A stretch of 64,000 nt of DNA from Cyanobacteria bacterium SBLK (lineage in GTDB: Bacteria > Cyanobacteriota > Cyanobacteriia > Cyanobacteriales > Spirulinaceae), in the NCBI GenBank assembly GCA_017746715.1, contig JAGHZQ010000034.1:62001-126000 (forward strand). The letters run 5' to 3'. Positions 30,842 through 39,039 of this stretch are shown here, one piece after another; the stretch's first letter is position 1, and each line of letters starts with the position of its first letter. The translations under genes and the position numbers were made by a program. The notes under the pieces are model-generated. The model was given only the letters and a program-made list of their open reading frames with translations, searched no databases and had not been told where the DNA came from.

Positions 30842-31222
30842 TCAAATTATTTTAACCAATAATGAGATGATTTCTTGAGAGCGTTTTACAGATTTATGAC
30901 TTTTCTTAGCAAGATCGAGAACACAATTTTGATAGTCTGCTTTGTTTCGATCTGTGCGTAAGTTCTTTAAGTTTTGACCGATGCGTTTATAGTCTGAATC
31001 TAAATTTTTGCTAAAATAAGACATGACTTCTTGATGAACCCTGCCCGTTTTGGAAAAGGTGCATCCCTTACGATCTTGCAGGTAGTTTCGTGCCGATACA
31101 AAAGCAGCATAATAAGCAAGATGAATGGACGCACGATACCGACATTCTCGATCGATGAGAGGTGTTGATTGTCCTAATATTTCTTCTGCTAAAGTCAAAT
31201 ACTGCGACCAATCAAATGCCAT
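30842..31222 (-). CDS. HEPN domain protein (putative RNase toxin)
   Basis: 126 residues, all helical, with N-terminal YRASIHLAYYAAFVSARNYL and a C-terminal LRTDRNKADYQNCV, matching HEPN proteins of the UPF0332-like group. The conserved R...ADY segment replaces the classical Rx4-6H. Several HEPN proteins are ribonuclease toxins paired with a small neutralising partner. Its start overlaps the stop of the upstream gene as TAATG at 31222, so the two are translationally coupled. The toxin role is inferred; a degenerate, non-catalytic HEPN is the alternative. Confidence 0.75.
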   Translation of the reverse strand: MAFDWSQYLTLAEEILGQSTPLIDRECRYRASIHLAYYAAFVSARNYLQDRKGCTFSKTGRVHQEVMSYFSKNLDSDYKRIGQNLKNLRTDRNKADYQNCVLDLAKKSHKSVKRSQEIISLLVKII

Positions 31223-31581
31223 TATTCAACCGAAACACAAAAGATTTCGCGTACTTTTGCAGACAAATTGAGATACCAGTCGTAGGAAAGTTGTTTTTCA
31301 ATCTCAAGCGATCGATCGATTTCTTCATCACTCTTTCCTTCTGTGACAATTTTCAAGAAAAGTTGCTGATAGTCTGGAATTTCTGGATCGACATGATATT
31401 CAAGGATTAAGTCATTATTTGGGAAATAATTGCGAATGCGATCGTGTCCTTCCGACAAAATCGAAATGATTTCACGATTTTCTTTGAGAAATTCTAGAAC
31501 TTCGTTTTTTTGTTCAAACTGATAAAACGCTTCTAGTTCGTCAATTCTTGTTGATAAGTTTGGTTGAGTAAGTGTTATCAT
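31222..31581 (-). CDS. Small acidic partner of the HEPN protein (putative antitoxin)
   Basis: 119 residues, first gene of the HEPN pair. It is acidic, with a helical N-terminal half (RIDELEAFYQFEQKNEVLEFL, ISILSEGHDRIRNYF) and a beta/helix C-terminal half (LILEYHVDPEIPDYQQLFLKI, LSYDWYLNLSAKVREIFCV). It has no nucleotidyltransferase GSxxxxxSDxD motif, so it is not an MNT-type partner. I know of no assigned function. Gene order, overlap and acidity suit an antitoxin. Its start lies just downstream of a tandem 20-bp repeat that may serve as an operator. Confidence 0.65.
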   Translation of the reverse strand: MITLTQPNLSTRIDELEAFYQFEQKNEVLEFLKENREIISILSEGHDRIRNYFPNNDLILEYHVDPEIPDYQQLFLKIVTEGKSDEEIDRSLEIEKQLSYDWYLNLSAKVREIFCVSVE

Positions 31582-31622: not shown

Positions 31623-31713
31623 AAATCTTGAGTCTACTTGTATAGTTTTAAGTTTAATGCCTTATAGTTATAGGCTACATAACTTAGTAAAACATGGTAT
31701 ATTAGTCTTTAGA

Positions 31714-31766
31714 GTCGAAAATCGACAGAAAAATCGGCAGATTGAGATATGTTGTCGAAAATCGAC
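31714..31766. promoter_or_regulatory. Duplicated palindrome, candidate operator pair
   Basis: GTCGAAAATCGAC occurs twice (31714-31726 and 31754-31766), each a 5-bp inverted repeat around AAA, 40 bp apart start to start, about four helical turns. They lie in the 311-bp divergent region between the HEPN pair and the HTH-ATPase gene. Same-face spacing suggests cooperative binding, possibly by the HTH protein encoded next door (inference). The rest of the gap is AT-rich and holds no ORF. Confidence 0.6.
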
Positions 31767-31892
31767 ATCTAGCATTCTGCTTGACACAAGCCCATTCTGT
31801 CTGTACGTAATAGGGATAACTCTAGATAATTCTCCCTACTCATGTAGATATCCTATATAGATTGACTCATCTATCAAACCTCAAGGGGTTAC

Positions 31893-33281
31893 TTGACTCC
31901 TATTAGATCGATGGCTCAAAAATTTCGTCTAACAAACAGTGGATTCAAAAAGGTCAATGAAAAAATTGGCAACATTGACGACACCGTAATTTCTGAGAAA
32001 TGTGATATTCACAGACAAACAGTTGCAAAAATCACAAAAAAGCAAGAACCTGTTAAAGACGTAACTATAATTAAACTTTTTCAGGGTCTCGATCTCGGCT
32101 TCCCCCAAGAAGGAAGAGATTATGAAGAATATTACGAACAAACGGATGCTAATTTAAAAAGCTCATCACAAGATACTATTTTACCTGCGAGCGATCAAAC
32201 AATACAAACTGAGAAAGCTATCGAAGAGACAAACCCTTTTTATATACAAAGATATGCAAAAAATTCTAACAAATCTTTAGAAGAGCAATGCTCTAAAATA
32301 TTGCAACAGTCCGGAGCATTAATTAGAATAAAAGCGCCTCAAGGCATGGGGAAAAAAAGTTTGATTTATGAAATCGCTAAGAGATTAAAACAGGAAACAA
32401 GTTATAATCTTGTTCTTTTAAATTTATCTCAAATCTTTGAGATTAAGACTCTAAGCAACTTAGAGAATTTTCTCAAAAATTTTTGTTTTTATGTTAGCGA
32501 TCGTCTCAAGATTCAAGAAAAAAGAAATATAAAATGGGATAATAATATTTCATCGCACTATAATAGCACGCGTTATTTTCAGGAATATCTCTTGCCTACC
32601 CTATCTAATCCAATTGTATTAATTATGGTAAACTTTGATAAGTTATTTGACAGTACAATTGTTGATGATTTTTGCAGTTTACTGCGTTCTTGGCATGAAG
32701 ATAGTCACCTCAATAACTCTGTATGGAAAAATCTTAGATTAGTTTTATCTTACAATACAGAAAGTTATGGTGCATTTAATATTAATAAATCTCGTTTGGG
32801 TAATGTTGGAATTCCAATTGAATTACCAGAATTTTCTAAACAACAAGTTTATCAATTGGTAAATTGTTACAGCCAAAGTCAACAGCTTTCTTGGAATTCT
32901 AAAATTATTAATCAATGGGTAGAAAGTCTTATGAAATTGGTAGGAGGGTATCCAAAACTATTGCGAGATTCACTAGATTACATTTCTGTATATAGCAAAA
33001 CCACAGTTGATGAATTCAAAAGTAATGCTTTAAGAGGTCAAGAACCATTGGGCAATCATTTGTTAGAGCATTGGAATATATTACGAGCAAATCCAAAATT
33101 ATATGAGGAATTTTGTCAAGTAATTATGAAGGATAAGTTAGTTTCATTACCACCAGAAAGTAGGTTTAAATTATACGGTATGGGTCTAATTAGCTATGAT
33201 GGAGAGAAAATTATTCCACGCTGTCAGTTATATCAAGATTACTTTTACGAACAATTTAAAAATTCAGGAGGTAATCAATGA
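31893..33281 (+). CDS. HTH-containing AAA-like (AAA_35/STAND-type) ATPase with altered Walker B
   Basis: 462 residues from a TTG preceded by AAGGGG; an ATG at 31911 (MAQKFRLTNSGF) is the other option. Residues 12-66 look like an XRE-type helix-turn-helix (DTVISEKCDIHRQTVAKITKK). A linker leads to a P-loop ATPase resembling the cyanobacterial AAA-like domain family: Walker A APQGMGKKS at 148-156. The Walker B region (IVLIMVNFDKLF) lacks the usual Asp-Glu pair, so hydrolysis may be impaired. The C-terminal part is winged-helix-like. It overlaps the next gene by 4 bp (ATGA). It may act as both DNA-binding regulator and ATPase partner (inference). Confidence 0.72.
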   Translation: MTPIRSMAQKFRLTNSGFKKVNEKIGNIDDTVISEKCDIHRQTVAKITKKQEPVKDVTIIKLFQGLDLGFPQEGRDYEEYYEQTDANLKSSSQDTILPASDQTIQTEKAIEETNPFYIQRYAKNSNKSLEEQCSKILQQSGALIRIKAPQGMGKKSLIYEIAKRLKQETSYNLVLLNLSQIFEIKTLSNLENFLKNFCFYVSDRLKIQEKRNIKWDNNISSHYNSTRYFQEYLLPTLSNPIVLIMVNFDKLFDSTIVDDFCSLLRSWHEDSHLNNSVWKNLRLVLSYNTESYGAFNINKSRLGNVGIPIELPEFSKQQVYQLVNCYSQSQQLSWNSKIINQWVESLMKLVGGYPKLLRDSLDYISVYSKTTVDEFKSNALRGQEPLGNHLLEHWNILRANPKLYEEFCQVIMKDKLVSLPPESRFKLYGMGLISYDGEKIIPRCQLYQDYFYEQFKNSGGNQ

Positions 33282-35869
33282 CAGAGATAAAGTCTTCGTC
33301 TGAATATTTTACAGTTGGTGGTAGTCTAAAGGCAAATGCATCCTCCTATGTAAAAAGAGCAGCAGATAGCGAATTGATCGAGAGTCTACTAGCTGGTAAA
33401 TTTTGTTATGTTCTTAATTCACGTCAAACAGGCAAGAGCAGCTTACTCACTCGGACAAAATATGAACTAGAAAAAAAAGAAAATTTTATATGTATTGCTA
33501 TAGATCTCAATCAAATAGGCATATCAGGAGTTTCAATTAAGCAATGGTATTATTCTTTAATGTATAAATTAAGAGATAATTTAGAACTTGACGTAGATTT
33601 GGAAAATTGGGAACAAGAGCGTCCCAATTTATCTCCCGGACAATATCTAGTTGAGTTTTTTGAAAAGATTGTATTAACACAAAGACAAGAAAATATTTTT
33701 ATTTTTATAGATGAAATTGATACAGTTTTAGGACTTAAATTTTCGATTGATGATTTTTTTGCTCTACTTCGGTCATTTTATAATGAACGAACTTACAAAC
33801 CAATATATAATCGTTTATCGTTTGCTTTATTTGGTGTAGCAACTCCTTATGACTTTATTCAAGATGCTCGAAGAACTCCCTTTAATATTGGTCAAGCAAT
33901 TAATTTAAAAGGCTTTCAAGTTGAAGAAATACACCCTTTAATTAATGGATTGAAGTCGAAAGCAGAAAATCCTGAAGCTGTAATACAAGAAATACTCTTT
34001 TGGACTCAAGGACAACCATTTCTGACCCAGAAAATTTGCGATCGGGTTTTAACTTCTCAGGAATACATTACCGAGGAGCGCGAAAAACAATATATAAGAG
34101 ATTTAGTATCATCTTCCATTATTAAAGATTGGGAAACTCAAGATGAGCCAGAACATTTAAGGACAATTCGCGATCGCGTCCTTTATCAAAAAGATTTTAA
34201 CGATCCAGATGTGCTAGATCGTCTAGCACTATACCAAAAAATTTTACAGGATGACGAAGTTAAATCTGAGGATAGTCCTGTCGCAATGAGCTTGAGACTT
34301 TCAGGATTAGTTATTGAAAAGAATAAAAAACTGAAAGTTTATAATCCTATCTATAAAAAGATTTTCAATCAAAATTGGGTAATTCAGCAACTTTCTAAGC
34401 ATGAACGTCCTCATGCAGAACAACTAACTAGACATCTAGAATCCAAAAACAAAGATTTCCCCTATCTTTTATATGGGAAATTATGGGAGGAATTTGATAG
34501 CTGGGAGAAAGGTAAAACTATAAGCCGCATGGAAAGAGACTTATCCTATGAAAGTAAATTGTCACACGAAAAAATATATCGTTATTTAGACAATATAAAA
34601 CCAAAAGAAACTATTATAAATACAGTTTTTTATTGGACATCAGGCCAAAAATTCTTAACAGAAACGATCGCAAAAACTATTGCACACTCTGTACTCAAAG
34701 CATTAAATCAAGATTATGAGCAACAAACCATTGATAATATCATTCAAGAATGTATATATAAAACTGATGAACAAAATATACATAATCATTTTCAAACAAT
34801 CGAAAAATATTTTCTTGTTAATCCGGGGGATTCTTTATTAACAGCTTATGAAAAAATATTAAAAAATCAAGAGATAGAAGCAGAAGAGAATGAAGAATAT
34901 CAAAAATTACAAGAAATAGGTTTAGTAGTCAAGAAACTAAGAAATCTTGTTATTGCTAATCGTGTTTATAAAGAGTATTTTGATCTGAATTGGATCGAGA
35001 AAATCCGTCTTTATGGAAACAAGCTACATAAATGGCTATCTTCCGATCGCCAAGATAATTCTCTGCTCTTGGTAGCTCAAGAGCTACATGATGCTATAGA
35101 ATGGTCAAAGCATAAACTTTTGAAATCTGAAGACTGTCAGTTTTTCATTGTTAGCCAAGTTTGGAATTCAAAGGGGAGACAAATGAATTGGCATCCTCAA
35201 GATGAAGCAGGCATTAAAATCCTCTTGGATTTTGTAGCCGAAATACAAGAGTCACAGAAAATGAATAGCCCAATTTCTCTTGTAACTCCAATACTCTCTT
35301 GGACTGATTGCGAACCCAATCTCACTAGAATAATTTGTCAACACATTCGTAACTCTGATGAAATTCCAATAGATAATGAAGAGCAGTTTGTTAATCAAAT
35401 TGTGGAAACTAGAATACTTGAGAATTGGGATGCACAGGAAGGAGCGGAACACTTGAAACAACTTCAAGAGTTAATTCTTAGTGATGAGAACGCTATCAGA
35501 CTGTTAAAATTATATAAGCAGGTTATCCAAAATAATACTCTTGGAGACAATACATATGATTTACAAGAAACCTTGTTAAAATTAGGTTTACTGAGAAAGG
35601 ACAATGAGAGACTCAAACTAGGTAATCGTATTTACGAAAAAGTTTTTGATTTGAATTGGATTGAAACAATGTTAAATACACTCAAACCTTACACAAAACA
35701 ACTCAATAATTGGTTAGAATCAAATTGTCAAGATGACGATCGGCTTTTGCAAGGAAAAGACTGGAAAAAGGCTGAAGAATGGGCAAAAAATCAAAAATTA
35801 AGTCCGGAGGAGAATTTGTTTTTAATAAAAAGTGTATTATTGAATCAACGGAGAGAAAAAAATGTTTAA
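33278..35869 (+). CDS. Multi-module AAA-like ATPase
   Basis: 863 residues with its own AGGAGG ribosome-binding site. Residues 1-230 are an AAA-like domain with Walker A NSRQTGKSS (47-55) and an intact Walker B IFIFIDEID (141-149). Three modules of about 210 residues follow, each with a WTxGQ-like start (242, 453, 675), a G-L-V turn, an NxIYKKxF segment and a helix at NWI (366, 571, 793). The third is cut at residue 860, and its continuation (NFDTIFQNFVLKAQEEQN) is at the start of the next gene in the +1 frame. Related cyanobacterial proteins join AAA, modules, a membrane helix and WD40 repeats in one chain. Cytoplasmic; signalling role inferred. Confidence 0.75.
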   Translation: MTEIKSSSEYFTVGGSLKANASSYVKRAADSELIESLLAGKFCYVLNSRQTGKSSLLTRTKYELEKKENFICIAIDLNQIGISGVSIKQWYYSLMYKLRDNLELDVDLENWEQERPNLSPGQYLVEFFEKIVLTQRQENIFIFIDEIDTVLGLKFSIDDFFALLRSFYNERTYKPIYNRLSFALFGVATPYDFIQDARRTPFNIGQAINLKGFQVEEIHPLINGLKSKAENPEAVIQEILFWTQGQPFLTQKICDRVLTSQEYITEEREKQYIRDLVSSSIIKDWETQDEPEHLRTIRDRVLYQKDFNDPDVLDRLALYQKILQDDEVKSEDSPVAMSLRLSGLVIEKNKKLKVYNPIYKKIFNQNWVIQQLSKHERPHAEQLTRHLESKNKDFPYLLYGKLWEEFDSWEKGKTISRMERDLSYESKLSHEKIYRYLDNIKPKETIINTVFYWTSGQKFLTETIAKTIAHSVLKALNQDYEQQTIDNIIQECIYKTDEQNIHNHFQTIEKYFLVNPGDSLLTAYEKILKNQEIEAEENEEYQKLQEIGLVVKKLRNLVIANRVYKEYFDLNWIEKIRLYGNKLHKWLSSDRQDNSLLLVAQELHDAIEWSKHKLLKSEDCQFFIVSQVWNSKGRQMNWHPQDEAGIKILLDFVAEIQESQKMNSPISLVTPILSWTDCEPNLTRIICQHIRNSDEIPIDNEEQFVNQIVETRILENWDAQEGAEHLKQLQELILSDENAIRLLKLYKQVIQNNTLGDNTYDLQETLLKLGLLRKDNERLKLGNRIYEKVFDLNWIETMLNTLKPYTKQLNNWLESNCQDDDRLLQGKDWKKAEEWAKNQKLSPEENLFLIKSVLLNQRREKNV
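35856..35862 (+). other. A7 run at the split between ATPase and WD40 genes
   Basis: Seven A residues precede TG. ORF 33278 reads GAA AAA AAT GTT TAA, while ORF 35862 starts with the last A of the run in the +1 frame. Six As would join both into a single frame of about 1,425 codons. A GGAG at 35850-35853 could also serve as a ribosome-binding site for the ATG at 35862. Options are transcriptional slippage, translational coupling, a recent mutation or an assembly error. Confidence 0.7.
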
Positions 35870-37556
35870 CTCTGATGATCGTGGAAATTTTGATACAATT
35901 TTTCAAAACTTTGTACTTAAAGCTCAAGAAGAGCAAAATATTGATAATCCCTTTGAATTGGTATCTCAAATTTCATTGTGGACCGGACAAAATTCGAGCA
36001 TGTGCAAACAGCTTTGTCAATTTATTCTCAATGGCAAATTTGAAATAGCTGATGGTAAAGAAAAAGTAGCGATGGAAAGGATTGTTGAAGCATATCTAAC
36101 ACAAAAGCTCCCTAATGAACTCCAAGAGAATTTACAGGATATCAAAAACTCTTTCTACACTAGAAAGTTCCAATATTGTCTTCATGAAGATGGAGGGAAA
36201 ATTTCTAAAAATAATCGTGTTTATTTAAACATCATAAAAGACCAAATTAATTTAAGTGAAGGACAAGCAGAAGCAGTAGAGAAAGAACAATATGAACCCT
36301 ATAATCAAAGAGAAGAGAACTTTAAAAAATATAAAGATTTTTACGAAACCCTGATTCAAAAGAAAAGTGAAGTAGGAAACACAGATCGAGAAAAACTTAC
36401 AAGTATTCAAAAAATGCTAAATCTTTCCGATAGAGACATACAAAGTATTGAAGAGAATACACTAAACAATAAGAATGCTATAGTTAAATTTAAACTTTTG
36501 TTTGGCCGACAAAAAAATATAAATATTTTCTTGGTATCTCTAATTTTTTTAGTTGGTTTAGGTACTGGTGGTGTTATTGGATTTTCTCTACCTTATCGGA
36601 TATCTGTAAGAGATAATCCGTCTATCACAGAGGCAAACACTCCGTTCAAGATACCCAATTTTAAAGAAAATTTTGATCTTAGTAATCACTTAACACAAAA
36701 AGATATTGCAGTCAATAGTATTGCTTTTACCCCTGATGGAACAAAAATTGTTATTGGCGGTCAAAATGGCAAACTCATTATCTGCGATCTAGAAACAGGA
36801 GACGTACTAGCAGAATCTCCCAACACTTCTAATGCAAATATTTTATCAATTGCTGTCAGTCCTAATAGCAATGAAATAATTAGTGGAAATGCAGCAGGAG
36901 CTATCAGAATATGGAATTGGAGAACCAATCAAGATAGATTGATTGGAGAGCATTCTTACCAAGTCAATTCTATTGCTATTAGTAAAAATGGAGAATATAT
37001 CGTAAGTGGTGATATAGATGGGTTAATTGAAATTTGGAATTTGAACGATCGCACTGATGATAAAACGATTGTTAGGGAGCGTCATCCAGTCAGAGTTAAT
37101 TCCATTGTATTACATCCATATCTTCTGGAGATTGTTAGTGGGAGTAGTGATGGTACATTAAGGCGATGGGATTTGAATTCAGGAGAATTAATTGAGATTT
37201 TTGATGCCGGTAAACCTGTCTTCGCAGTTGCTGTAGAACCAACCGGACAAACACTATTTGCCGGTTTAGAAGATGGAACAATTAGACTTTTTAAGTTTAA
37301 TAATCAAGCTAATATTACGCTTAAAGGCAGTAACTCAAAAATTTCATCTTTAGCAATTAGTCAAAATGGTAGAATTCTCGTAAGTGGCGATAACGATCGC
37401 AGAGTTCGCATCTGGGACTTAAGAGACCAGAAAGGAATACAATCTTTAGAGGAACATCCTACTTATATTACTTCCGTTGCTATTAGTCCTGATAATCAAA
37501 CGATTATCACTGCTAGTAGAGATAAAACCATTAAAGTATGGCAAGGAGAAAAATAG
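35862..37556 (+). CDS. Membrane-anchored seven-bladed WD40 protein
   Basis: 564 residues. Residues 1-140 carry the continuation of the upstream ATPase's repeat module (ISLWTGQN at 37-44, NNRVYLNIIKD near 117). A coiled segment (YKDFYETLIQKKSEV ... LNLSDRDIQSIEEN) precedes one membrane helix at 219-243 (INIFLVSLIFLVGLGTGGVIG) flanked by FGRQK on the inner side. Residues 281-562 form seven WD40 blades, for example VNSIAFTPDGTKI, VNSIAISKNGEYIVSGD and ITSVAISPDNQTIITASRD. By the positive-inside rule the propeller would be periplasmic (inference). It overlaps the upstream ORF by 8 bp, and the SBP gene follows 74 bp downstream. Confidence 0.78.
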   Translation: MFNSDDRGNFDTIFQNFVLKAQEEQNIDNPFELVSQISLWTGQNSSMCKQLCQFILNGKFEIADGKEKVAMERIVEAYLTQKLPNELQENLQDIKNSFYTRKFQYCLHEDGGKISKNNRVYLNIIKDQINLSEGQAEAVEKEQYEPYNQREENFKKYKDFYETLIQKKSEVGNTDREKLTSIQKMLNLSDRDIQSIEENTLNNKNAIVKFKLLFGRQKNINIFLVSLIFLVGLGTGGVIGFSLPYRISVRDNPSITEANTPFKIPNFKENFDLSNHLTQKDIAVNSIAFTPDGTKIVIGGQNGKLIICDLETGDVLAESPNTSNANILSIAVSPNSNEIISGNAAGAIRIWNWRTNQDRLIGEHSYQVNSIAISKNGEYIVSGDIDGLIEIWNLNDRTDDKTIVRERHPVRVNSIVLHPYLLEIVSGSSDGTLRRWDLNSGELIEIFDAGKPVFAVAVEPTGQTLFAGLEDGTIRLFKFNNQANITLKGSNSKISSLAISQNGRILVSGDNDRRVRIWDLRDQKGIQSLEEHPTYITSVAISPDNQTIITASRDKTIKVWQGEK

Positions 37557-37630
37557 GTAAAAGAACTTGTTCTAGTATGAACTCTAGATTTATCGTATAA
37601 CCTTTTACTCAAAATTTTGACATACAAACA

Positions 37631-38710
37631 ATGTTTTCCATTCAAAAAATTGTACTTCTATTGGTTTTCCTCTTAACCTTATTTTCTAATGCTTGTTCTC
37701 AAACTTCTGACGACATAGAATCAGAGCTAAATCCAGAGCTAAATCTGGATAGTCGCTTAAATTTAATTCTCGATCGAAAAAAGATAATCTGTGGAATTAA
37801 TGGTGCATCACCGGGAATTAGTTTTGAAGAGCCAAATGGTCGATATACCGGCTTAGATGTTGATATTTGTCGTGCGCTCGCAGCCGCTTTATTCGACGAT
37901 CCAGAAGCAGTAGAATATGTAAAACTTGATTCTACGAGGCGTTTTGCTGCGCTTATTCAAAATCAAATTGATGTTTTATCTCGCAATACAACTTGGACTC
38001 TTAAACGTGATGGGGCTGTTGGTATTGCATTTGGTCCAACTATCTTTTATGACAGTCAAGCTGTGATGGTTCGTAAAGATGGGACAATCAGGAAATTATC
38101 ACATTTCCAAAATAAATCTATCTGCGTTGAAGATGGAACAATAACTGCACTCAATTTAGATGACAAAATGCAAGAGCTAGACATTCTTTATGGAAAGATT
38201 GTCTTAAAGGATACTTCAAATACCTATAAGCCCTATGAAGATGAGAAATGTGATGGGGTGACTGCCGATCGCTCTCAACTCATCGTCCGTAAATCACAAT
38301 TGCAGAATCCAGACGATCATATTATTTTAGAGCTAGAGGAACGAGAACAAATATCAAAAGAACCGTTAGGACCTGCTGTTGCCGATGGTGACTCGCAATG
38401 GTTTGATATTGTACAGTGGGTGGTCTTTGCTCTCATCGAAGCGGAAGAATTGGGAATTACTCAAGCAAATATCGACCAATTGGAAAACTCTAAAAATCCT
38501 GCCATTCGACGTTTTTTAGGGAAAGAGGGAGAGTTGGGTGCGGGGTTGGGGATATCCAACGATTTTGCTAAGCGGGTTATCAAGCATGTGGGAAACTATG
38601 AGGAAATCTACGATCGCAACCTCGGAGCCAAATCCCAGTTTAAAGAACCTCGGGGGTTAAACGCACTGTGGAAAGATGGCGGACTCCTGTACTCCCCTCC
38701 CTTCCGGTAA
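37631..38710 (+). CDS. Amino-acid ABC transporter substrate-binding lipoprotein (AapJ/BztA-like), orphan
   Basis: 359 residues. The signal peptide ends in a lipobox LFSNAC with Cys22, so the mature protein should be lipidated and periplasmic. The mature domain has PAAT-family features of AapJ/BztA: IICGINGASPGISF, GLDVDICRALAAALF, LDSTRRFAALIQNQIDVLSRNTTWTLKRD and a C-terminal NPAIRRFLG. This family binds L-amino acids. No permease or ATPase gene is adjacent, so it either serves an importer encoded elsewhere or acts as the ligand sensor for the membrane WD40 protein encoded just upstream (inference). Same strand, 74-bp gap. Confidence 0.82.
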   Translation: MFSIQKIVLLLVFLLTLFSNACSQTSDDIESELNPELNLDSRLNLILDRKKIICGINGASPGISFEEPNGRYTGLDVDICRALAAALFDDPEAVEYVKLDSTRRFAALIQNQIDVLSRNTTWTLKRDGAVGIAFGPTIFYDSQAVMVRKDGTIRKLSHFQNKSICVEDGTITALNLDDKMQELDILYGKIVLKDTSNTYKPYEDEKCDGVTADRSQLIVRKSQLQNPDDHIILELEEREQISKEPLGPAVADGDSQWFDIVQWVVFALIEAEELGITQANIDQLENSKNPAIRRFLGKEGELGAGLGISNDFAKRVIKHVGNYEEIYDRNLGAKSQFKEPRGLNALWKDGGLLYSPPFR

Positions 38711-38919: not shown

Positions 38920-39039
38920 ATGACACCAACACTTTCTAACTTTTTCTTCAGCCTGATTGCCGGCGCATTGGTTGTTGTAGTTCCTGCAACTGTCGGTTTG
39001 ATTATTATCAGCCAAGCTGACAAAATCAAGCGTACCTAG
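38920..39039 (+). CDS. psbX: Photosystem II protein PsbX
   Basis: 39 residues starting MTPTLSNFFFSLIAGAL and ending IIISQADKIKRT, a single membrane helix with the PATVGLI motif typical of PsbX. The Synechocystis protein begins MTPSLANFLWSL and shares PATVGLIFISQ. PsbX is a thylakoid subunit near cytochrome b559 that affects quinone exchange at the QB site. It has its own strong terminator 44 bp downstream and no close gene upstream, so it is probably a monocistronic transcript. Confidence 0.95.
   Translation: MTPTLSNFFFSLIAGALVVVVPATVGLIIISQADKIKRT

What the first reader, a model, noticed from the sequence alone, without database searches (positions are those of the whole stretch)
31893..38710. 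Candidate split membrane sensing system: HTH-ATPase, modular ATPase, membrane WD40 propeller and orphan ligand-binding lipoprotein
Four consecutive plus-strand genes. The first three overlap (4 bp and 8 bp). They encode a DNA-binding AAA-like protein, an AAA-like ATPase with three repeats of about 210 residues, and a fourth repeat joined to a membrane helix and exactly seven WD40 blades. The positive-inside rule puts the propeller in the periplasm, where the AapJ/BztA-like lipoprotein encoded 74 bp downstream would also be; that lipoprotein has no permease beside it. Inference: the lipoprotein binds an amino acid, docks on the propeller, and the signal reaches the ATPases and the HTH protein. 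I know of no described system with this layout.
Basis: partly seen in the sequence, partly recalled or inferred. Interest (0 to 1): 0.75.

Follow-up and report, generated by a model that had tools for sequence, protein, structure and literature searches.

The report
Split NLR-like membrane signalling operon
This cyanobacterial operon encodes a pair of related ATPase-family proteins, one of them predicted to have the fold of NLR immune receptors, that would likely carry a signal from a predicted periplasmic WD40 propeller, perhaps helped by the amino-acid-binding lipoprotein encoded next door, to a likely DNA-binding protein; the same two-gene pairing, with other sensors and outputs, occurs in 8 of 12 cyanobacterial genomes examined (its own included).

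Summary
The four genes are real. Genes 1-3 are a three-gene version of a recurrent module in which an output-bearing AAA_35 protein (P1) precedes a sensor-bearing one (P2): 20 ordered pairs among 50 P1-type matches in 12 genomes, 0 in reverse order, about 0.04 expected. P1's modelled core has the STAND/NLR fold. P1 partners elsewhere carry GerE HTH, GGDEF, cyclase, TIR or trypsin; P2 partners carry TM-WD40, CHASE2 or PG-binding domains. A paralogous operon here (L050) has the same P1-P2-P3 order, P3 ending in kinase-TM-periplasmic binding protein. In the window P1 has an HTH-like N-terminus and degenerate Walker motifs (likely pseudo-ATPase), P2 intact ones, P3 one TM and seven blades, predicted outside. 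Its role rests on SBP fusions and L050. A palindrome pair upstream is a candidate operator.

The parts
31713..31727 (.). palindrome copy 1, AGTCGAAAATCGACA (candidate operator)
31753..31767 (.). palindrome copy 2, TGTCGAAAATCGACA, 40 bp from copy 1; the only pair of near-identical 6-3-6 palindromes within 100 bp in the window, and 2 of the 3 sites with at most 1 mismatch in the 7.44-Mb genome
31911..33281 (+). P1: N-terminal HTH-like domain (predicted) plus P1-type AAA_35 STAND-like core, degenerate Walker A and B
31935..32087 (+). P1 residues 9-59, four predicted helices, HTH-like
   Evidence: no Pfam hit
32334..32360 (+). P1 Walker A, APQGMGKKS (GKK where paralogues have GKT or GKS)
32613..32639 (+). 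P1 Walker B, IVLIMVNFD (V where paralogues have the Walker B Asp)
33278..35869 (+). P2: P2-type AAA_35 ATPase with intact Walker A (GKSS) and B (IFIDEID), plus two further copies of its C-terminal lobe
35862..37556 (+). P3: half lobe module, helical linker (low model confidence), one TM, seven-bladed WD40 propeller
36525..36581 (+). P3 transmembrane helix (residues 222-240)
36669..37553 (+). P3 seven-bladed propeller (residues 270-564), predicted extracytoplasmic
37631..38710 (+). orphan NatF/AapJ-type substrate-binding lipoprotein; possible accessory ligand-binding input

Best explanation
Genes 1-3 are one member of a recurrent module in which an output-bearing AAA_35 protein (P1) is encoded just before a sensor-bearing AAA_35 ATPase (P2/P3), and this member would likely relay a signal from a predicted periplasmic WD40 propeller across the membrane to a likely DNA-binding protein, perhaps with the neighbouring lipoprotein as an extra input. 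Shown by sequence: the gene order and overlaps, the AAA_35 domains, the repeated lobe modules, intact Walker motifs in P2, degenerate ones in P1, one TM, seven WD40 hits, and the recurrence of the P1-P2 order with differing outputs and sensors. Predicted by model: P1's core has the STAND/NLR fold, its N-terminus is a small helical HTH-like domain, and the propeller has seven blades. Inferred: (1) the propeller lies in the periplasm and binds a protein or ligand; (2) binding alters the P3 lobe/linker, which packs with P2's homologous lobes; (3) ATP cycling by P2 makes or breaks a P2-P1 assembly, with P1 a pseudo-ATPase that cannot act alone; (4) this changes the oligomeric state or freedom of P1's HTH, which acts at the doubled palindrome in front of its own operon and perhaps elsewhere; (5) least certain (about 0.4), the lipoprotein, still able to bind amino acids, presents its ligand-bound state to P3.
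For: P1-P2 ordered pairs: 20 among 50 P1-type matches in 12 genomes, reverse order 0, about 0.04 expected if placed independently. P1 outputs: GerE HTH in L129, GGDEF in L131, cyclase in L130, Trypsin-TIR in L050, TIR in L051, HTH_3 hits below cut-off in L048 and L049. AAA_35 is also printed as an accessory domain of cyanobacterial sigma factors (2.80% of accessory domains; passage of PMC11119718), a precedent for AAA_35 on a transcription protein. P2 sensors in pairs: TM plus PG_binding_1 in L129 and TM-WD40 in L131, CHASE2 in L052 and L051, TM-TPR in L049. L050 in the same genome is a three-gene paralogue: P1 33% and P2 42% identical over 366 and 645 aligned positions, and P3 starts with the same half module (E 1e-7 in a comparison of few sequences) and then has kinase-TM-Peripla_BP_6. 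Fusions: 11 of the 120 P2 homologues listed (of 4568; the query is one of the 120) carry a binding-protein domain (9 PF12849, 2 PF01094/PF13458); four were fetched, and three of those have a TM called between AAA_35 and the binding domain. Topology: SBP fusions, 11 of 11 called TMs have more K/R before than after, 10 of them valid (P0036's lies inside its binding domain); WD40 fusions, 19 of 22; histidine-kinase fusions, 0 of 10 have a TM; PAS/GAF fusions, 1 of 6. Fold of P1 (Z, rmsd, aligned): 2qen 20.4, 4.1, 305; NLR WRR4A 18.4, 4.1, 294; CED-4 17.5, 4.4, 305; Apaf-1 apoptosome 15.8, 4.2, 298; 8bob (maltose regulator, MalT by recall) 13.3, 3.5, 229. Palindromes.
Against: No orthologue of this exact operon was found. 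P2's listed homologues other than itself are at most 52% identical over about half of it, the full-length ones 35-39%, and P3 residues 1-275 find nothing but themselves. The HTH has no Pfam hit. Membrane anchoring is not universal: of the 9 pairs in this genome, 5 lead to a TM protein (two through a third gene, the window and L050), L048 and L055 have none called, L054 is a fragment and L053 is cut by its contig end; L130's P2 has no TM called after the ATPase. GUN4-fused AAA_35 proteins have the same single TM (7 of 7), although GUN4 is usually held to be cytoplasmic/stromal (recalled), so the slot is not proven to be outside. Two of 22 WD40 fusions have more K/R after the TM, one ties, and 3 of 25 have no TM called. 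Thirty of 50 P1-type matches are not paired by my rule, and 4 of 12 genomes have no pair. P1 and P2 are homologous, so an old tandem duplication could explain adjacency without a shared function. The lipoprotein link is not conserved. Of the five paralogous pairs with a named output above the cut-off, one (GerE) is transcriptional. The palindromes lie between two divergent transcription units, so they may belong to the HEPN side.
Confidence: 0.55

Rival explanations
1. The lipoprotein is a bystander: a NatF/AapJ-type binding protein that lost its permease, landed downstream of the operon, and works with another transporter or alone; genes 1-3 signal without it.
For: In 28 of 29 relatives' loci a permease-family ORF lies downstream (two cluster members checked with Pfam); none has an ORF similar to P1-P3 within 1.5 kb. 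The best homologue P0122 (70%) is on a contig of 29,376 bases, a length that does not appear among the 120 listed P2 homologues (a capped list showing the longest contig only). Of 17 SBP matches in this genome (two SBP families searched), 2 lie within 3 kb of an AAA_35 match: this one and L050's fused domain.
Against: No NatG-like permease remains in the genome (best hit 35% over 107 residues; genome 95% complete; the second permease of such transporters was not searched). AAA_35-TM-SBP fusions and the L050 operon show binding proteins as natural inputs of this module. In two more operons of this genome a possibly exported protein directly follows the sensor gene: L052 DUF928 at 24 bp (clear N-terminal hydrophobic segment) and L049 PG_binding_1 at 5 bp (weak one, 1.54, below the TM threshold).
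Confidence: 0.5
2. The module is an NLR-like conflict or cell-death system (defence against phage or rivals); the P1 N-terminus is an adaptor that recruits an effector rather than a DNA-binding domain.
For: NLR/CED-4 fold; TIR and trypsin on paralogous P1 proteins; 47 matches in this genome against 1-9 in five family relatives; STAND conflict systems of multicellular bacteria (passages of PMC7159879 and PMC8195603). A HEPN gene pair lies next door.
Against: No PADLOC model hits genes 1, 2 or 4 at E 0.01, and gene 3 only through its propeller. Outputs in relatives include GerE HTH, GGDEF and cyclase, which are ordinary regulatory outputs, and sensors include CHASE2 and binding proteins.
Confidence: 0.25
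3. The propeller is cytoplasmic and the TM only anchors the complex, with P3 a scaffold.
For: GUN4-fused AAA_35 proteins have the same TM (7 of 7); WD40 domains are mostly cytoplasmic in general (recalled).
Against: K/R bias before the TM (4 against 2 in P3; 19 of 22 in WD40 fusions); extracytoplasmic domains in the same slot in relatives.
Confidence: 0.15

Closest known systems
STAND/NLR signalling ATPases (Apaf-1, CED-4, plant NLRs, MalT)
   Different: Effector and sensor sit on two ATPase-family proteins encoded side by side, the sensor side is membrane-anchored, and P1's Walker motifs are degenerate.
Plant paired NLRs (sensor/helper, e.g. RRS1 with a DNA-binding domain; recalled, no call)
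   Same: Two adjacent NLR-type genes, one with a DNA-binding domain, one with an intact P-loop.
   Different: Plants, not membrane-anchored by a TM sensor; homology at pair level not tested.
AAA_35 (PF14516) TM-WD40 proteins of cyanobacteria
   Same: Same AAA_35-lobe-TM-WD40 order, in examples such as P0057, P0102 and L131 as one chain of about 1150-1200 aa.
   Different: Here split into P2 and P3, with two extra lobe modules in P2 and a half module in P3.
System 4 of PMC7159879 (section 33 read)
   Same: A membrane-associated two-gene system with some TM-extracellular PBP domains.
   Different: Its genes are EACC1 and a caspase-type protein; no caspase hit appears among the Pfam families listed for these proteins.
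NatF/AapJ/BztA amino-acid binding proteins
   Same: The lipoprotein is 46-55% identical to the 11 members aligned besides P0122, with the SRNTTWT motif kept, and matches solved chain 4z9n. The family names NatF/AapJ/BztA are recalled.
   Different: No permease beside it (ORF list) and no NatG-like permease in the genome.

Membership tests
AAA_35 (PF14516) | domain above the curated cut-off in P1 and P2 | tested here: met
   303 and 122 bits, cut-off 27
STAND NTPase | NLR-like NTPase fold | tested here: met
STAND NTPase | effector, NTPase and sensor in one chain | tested here: not met
   split over P1, P2 and P3
STAND NTPase | intact Walker A and B in P1 | tested here: not met
   GKK and V for D
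STAND NTPase | intact Walker A and B in P2 | tested here: met
   GKSS, IFIDEID
XRE-type HTH DNA-binding protein (P1) | HTH domain recognised by a profile | tested here: not met
   no Pfam hit up to E 5 for residues 1-90
XRE-type HTH DNA-binding protein (P1) | helices in HTH arrangement | tested here: inconclusive
   helices 9-19, 24-31, 35-42, 50-59, block pLDDT 71-82; not compared with solved HTH folds, as spans 99-456 only
seven-bladed WD40 propeller (P3) | seven four-stranded blades | tested here: met
   28 strands; 5yzv chains TM-score 0.90-0.95 normalised by target
SBP_bac_3 / NatF-AapJ type | SBP_bac_3 domain | tested here: met
   55 bits, cut-off 26.4
SBP_bac_3 / NatF-AapJ type | cognate (NatG-like) permease nearby or in the genome | tested here: not met
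   one permease of relatives used as query; genome 95% complete
TIGR01096 lysine/arginine/ornithine SBP | above curated cut-off | tested here: not met
   129 bits, cut-off 256
known defence systems (PADLOC) | model hit outside the propeller | tested here: not met
   genes 1-4 at E 0.01

The most novel reading that the evidence does not exclude
Cyanobacteria own a further kind of transmembrane two-gene signalling, a split NLR: a STAND ATPase with a membrane sensor (binding protein, WD40, CHASE2, PG-binding domain) activates an adjacent-encoded partner STAND protein that carries an interchangeable output (HTH, GGDEF, cyclase, TIR, protease). The window shows a derived form in which the output partner is a pseudo-ATPase transcription factor with its own doubled operator and a captured amino-acid receptor lipoprotein.
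Probability: 0.4. Interest if true: 0.87.

Novelty: new variant of a known kind. Interest (0 to 1): 0.63.

Why it matters
If right, NLR-type ATPases, known as single-chain immune and cell-death switches, also serve as paired, membrane-anchored receptors with swappable inputs and outputs, comparable in logic to histidine kinase/response regulator pairs. It would give a function to a large family (PF14516) whose accession found no paper in the library searched, and the pairs give a defined experiment: does the sensor ATPase control its neighbour? A WD40 propeller outside the cytoplasm and a substrate-binding protein recruited from a transporter would each be notable.

Tried and rejected
Conserved co-occurrence of all four genes was looked for and not found: SBP searches of 59 genomes and 388 genomes of the order, and P0122 in 386 genomes of the phylum, the own genome counted in each. 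In one search the neighbours of 29 of 40 strong matches outside the own genome were looked at (1.5-kb flanks); for one search's further matches they were not. The genome-contig scan with A1 used two short peptide patterns and returned 20 loci, none named as cyanobacterial. Reading the site through the downstream methyltransferase in 19 genomes (own included; 9 with a match) gave no informative synteny. P3 residues 1-275 found no homologue. Promoter and terminator scans were at chance level (27 against 28.8; 4 against 4.0). Structural matches not listed are not excluded. P3 residues 54-269 were not modelled with confidence, and rank 1 (9ijj, rmsd 66) was set aside as not a compact match.

Rows dropped before the count: fragments at 166, 88.8, 66.4, 49.6 and 27.9 bits in G044; 106.1 and 21.9 in G097; 46.6 and 28.2 in G001; 32.7 in G070; 50.7 and 22.9 in G000. 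P1-type and P2-type were split by score (over 200, up to 140 bits), my own rule. The 12 genomes were chosen by me (own genome, five family relatives, six near-complete genomes of other families). In one search the sets were hand-picked from the 120 listed homologues by their Pfam column, plus window and own-genome proteins; P0036's called TM lies inside its binding domain and P0078's was missed at the threshold. In one search the Walker A pattern was found in 16 of 18 other own-genome P1-type proteins and the Walker B pattern in 9 of 18; one of the 19 others (C10) was not fetched. In one search the PsbX query was one base out of frame; nothing rests on it.

Papers: PMC7159879 passages and section 33; PMC8195603, PMC10907252, PMC11119718 and PMC9679502 passages; all others only as search listings. 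Searches whose listings and passages showed no description of AAA_35 pairs: (open-licence papers only; most listed papers not opened).

Full report
Observation. The four plus-strand ORFs, their overlaps (4 and 8 bp) and the 74-bp gap are as described. P1 more likely starts at the ATG at 31911. P1 and P2 carry AAA_35 (PF14516), P3 seven WD40 stretches, gene 4 SBP_bac_3. An HMM made from P2's AAA_35 C-terminal lobe and its homologues finds three copies in P2 and about half a copy in P3.

The module. AAA_35 matches fall into two score classes, P1-type (over 200 bits) and P2-type (up to 140), with few between. P1-type is followed on the same strand within 1 kb by P2-type in 20 of 50 cases in 12 genomes; the reverse order occurs 0 times; about 0.04 are expected if placed independently. 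Eight of the 12 genomes, the own one included, have at least one pair; G001, G004, G068 and G110 have none. In the window's genome 9 of 20 P1-type matches are paired, 8 of them with 67-103 bp between matched domains. Pairs annotated with Pfam: L129 GerE HTH-AAA_35 then AAA_35-TM with PG_binding_1; L131 AAA_35-GGDEF then AAA_35-TM-WD40; L130 AAA_35-cyclase then AAA_35 with WD40-like hits but no TM called; L050 Trypsin-TIR-AAA_35, then AAA_35 with repeats, then kinase-TM-Peripla_BP_6; L051 TIR-AAA_35 then three AAA_35 plus CHASE2; L052 P1-type then two AAA_35 plus CHASE2; L049 P1-type then AAA_35-TM-TPR. In these, outputs lie on P1 and sensors on P2 or P3. Of the 9 own pairs, L048 and L055 have no TM called, L054 is a fragment and L053 is cut by its contig end, so membrane anchoring is common, not universal.

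The nearest paralogue. L050, in the same genome, has the same three-gene order. P1 is 33% identical (366 aligned positions) and P2 42% (645), and P3 begins with the same half module. Its P3 ends, after the TM, in a periplasmic binding protein, where the window has the propeller and, next to it, a free binding lipoprotein. This is the best argument that the lipoprotein belongs, together with 11 binding-protein fusions among the 120 P2 homologues listed out of 4568.

P3. Seven blades, 28 strands; the best compact solved match is a prokaryotic WD40 domain, 5yzv. K/R counts before and after the TM are 4 and 2. In SBP fusions 11 of 11 called TMs have more K/R before (10 of them valid); in WD40 fusions 19 of 22, with 2 the other way and 1 tie; histidine-kinase fusions have no TM in 10 of 10; PAS/GAF fusions none in 5 of 6; GUN4 fusions have the TM in 7 of 7, which speaks against taking the slot as always outside.

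The lipoprotein. It is the only strong NatF/AapJ-type match in the genome, 70% identical to P0122 and 46-55% to the 11 other cyanobacterial homologues in alignment A2; the lipobox Cys and the SRNTTWT motif are invariant there. In 28 of 29 relatives' loci (1.5-kb flanks; 29 of 40 strong matches) an ORF of one BLAST cluster lies downstream; two members were tested and both are BPD_transp_1 permeases. L017 is the exception. None of the 29 shows an ORF similar to P1-P3. The genome lacks a NatG-like permease. In two other operons here a possibly exported protein follows the sensor gene at once: L052 (DUF928) and, less clearly, L049 (PG_binding_1). I put the lipoprotein's participation at about 0.4.

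Control DNA. Two near-identical palindromes at 31713 and 31753 are the only such pair within 100 bp among 388 near-palindromes of the window, and two of three sites with at most one mismatch in the genome. They lie between P1 and the divergent HEPN pair, so either side may use them.

Verdict. Genes 1-3: a split, likely membrane-anchored STAND/NLR-type signalling module, well supported as a gene module and inferred in mechanism. Gene 4: plausible accessory input, not shown. No description of such pairs was seen in the searches listed under Tried and rejected.

Noticed in passing
window 30842-31581 (-): HEPN-domain gene (PF05168, 23.1 bits, cut-off 22) overlapping a 119-aa partner with a weak PADLOC PDC-M04B hit, divergent from P1: a possible toxin-antitoxin-like pair sharing the palindrome-bearing intergenic region.
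   Followed up: partly
window 38920-39039 (+): 39-aa ORF that looks like photosystem II PsbX (name recalled).
   Followed up: no
G000, 47 AAA_35 matches: Many AAA_35 matches in this genome against 1-9 in five family relatives and 3-19 in six genomes of other families.
   Followed up: partly
L065:2808-6074 (-): AAA_35 fused to a Na+/H+ exchanger domain, suggesting ATPase-controlled transport.
   Followed up: no
L049:5303-6316 (-) and L052:9788-10729 (+): Possibly exported proteins (PG_binding_1; DUF928) encoded 5 and 24 bp after a membrane AAA_35 sensor gene.
   Followed up: partly
L134:6947-8745 and L135:6783-7130: Low-complexity LLVVGCW tandem repeats beside AAA_35 genes in G007.
   Followed up: no
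L104 (G000:C46:99580-100707): Alignment with P0122 extends 17 residues upstream of the lipoprotein ATG through a stop, hinting at a conserved leader.
   Followed up: no
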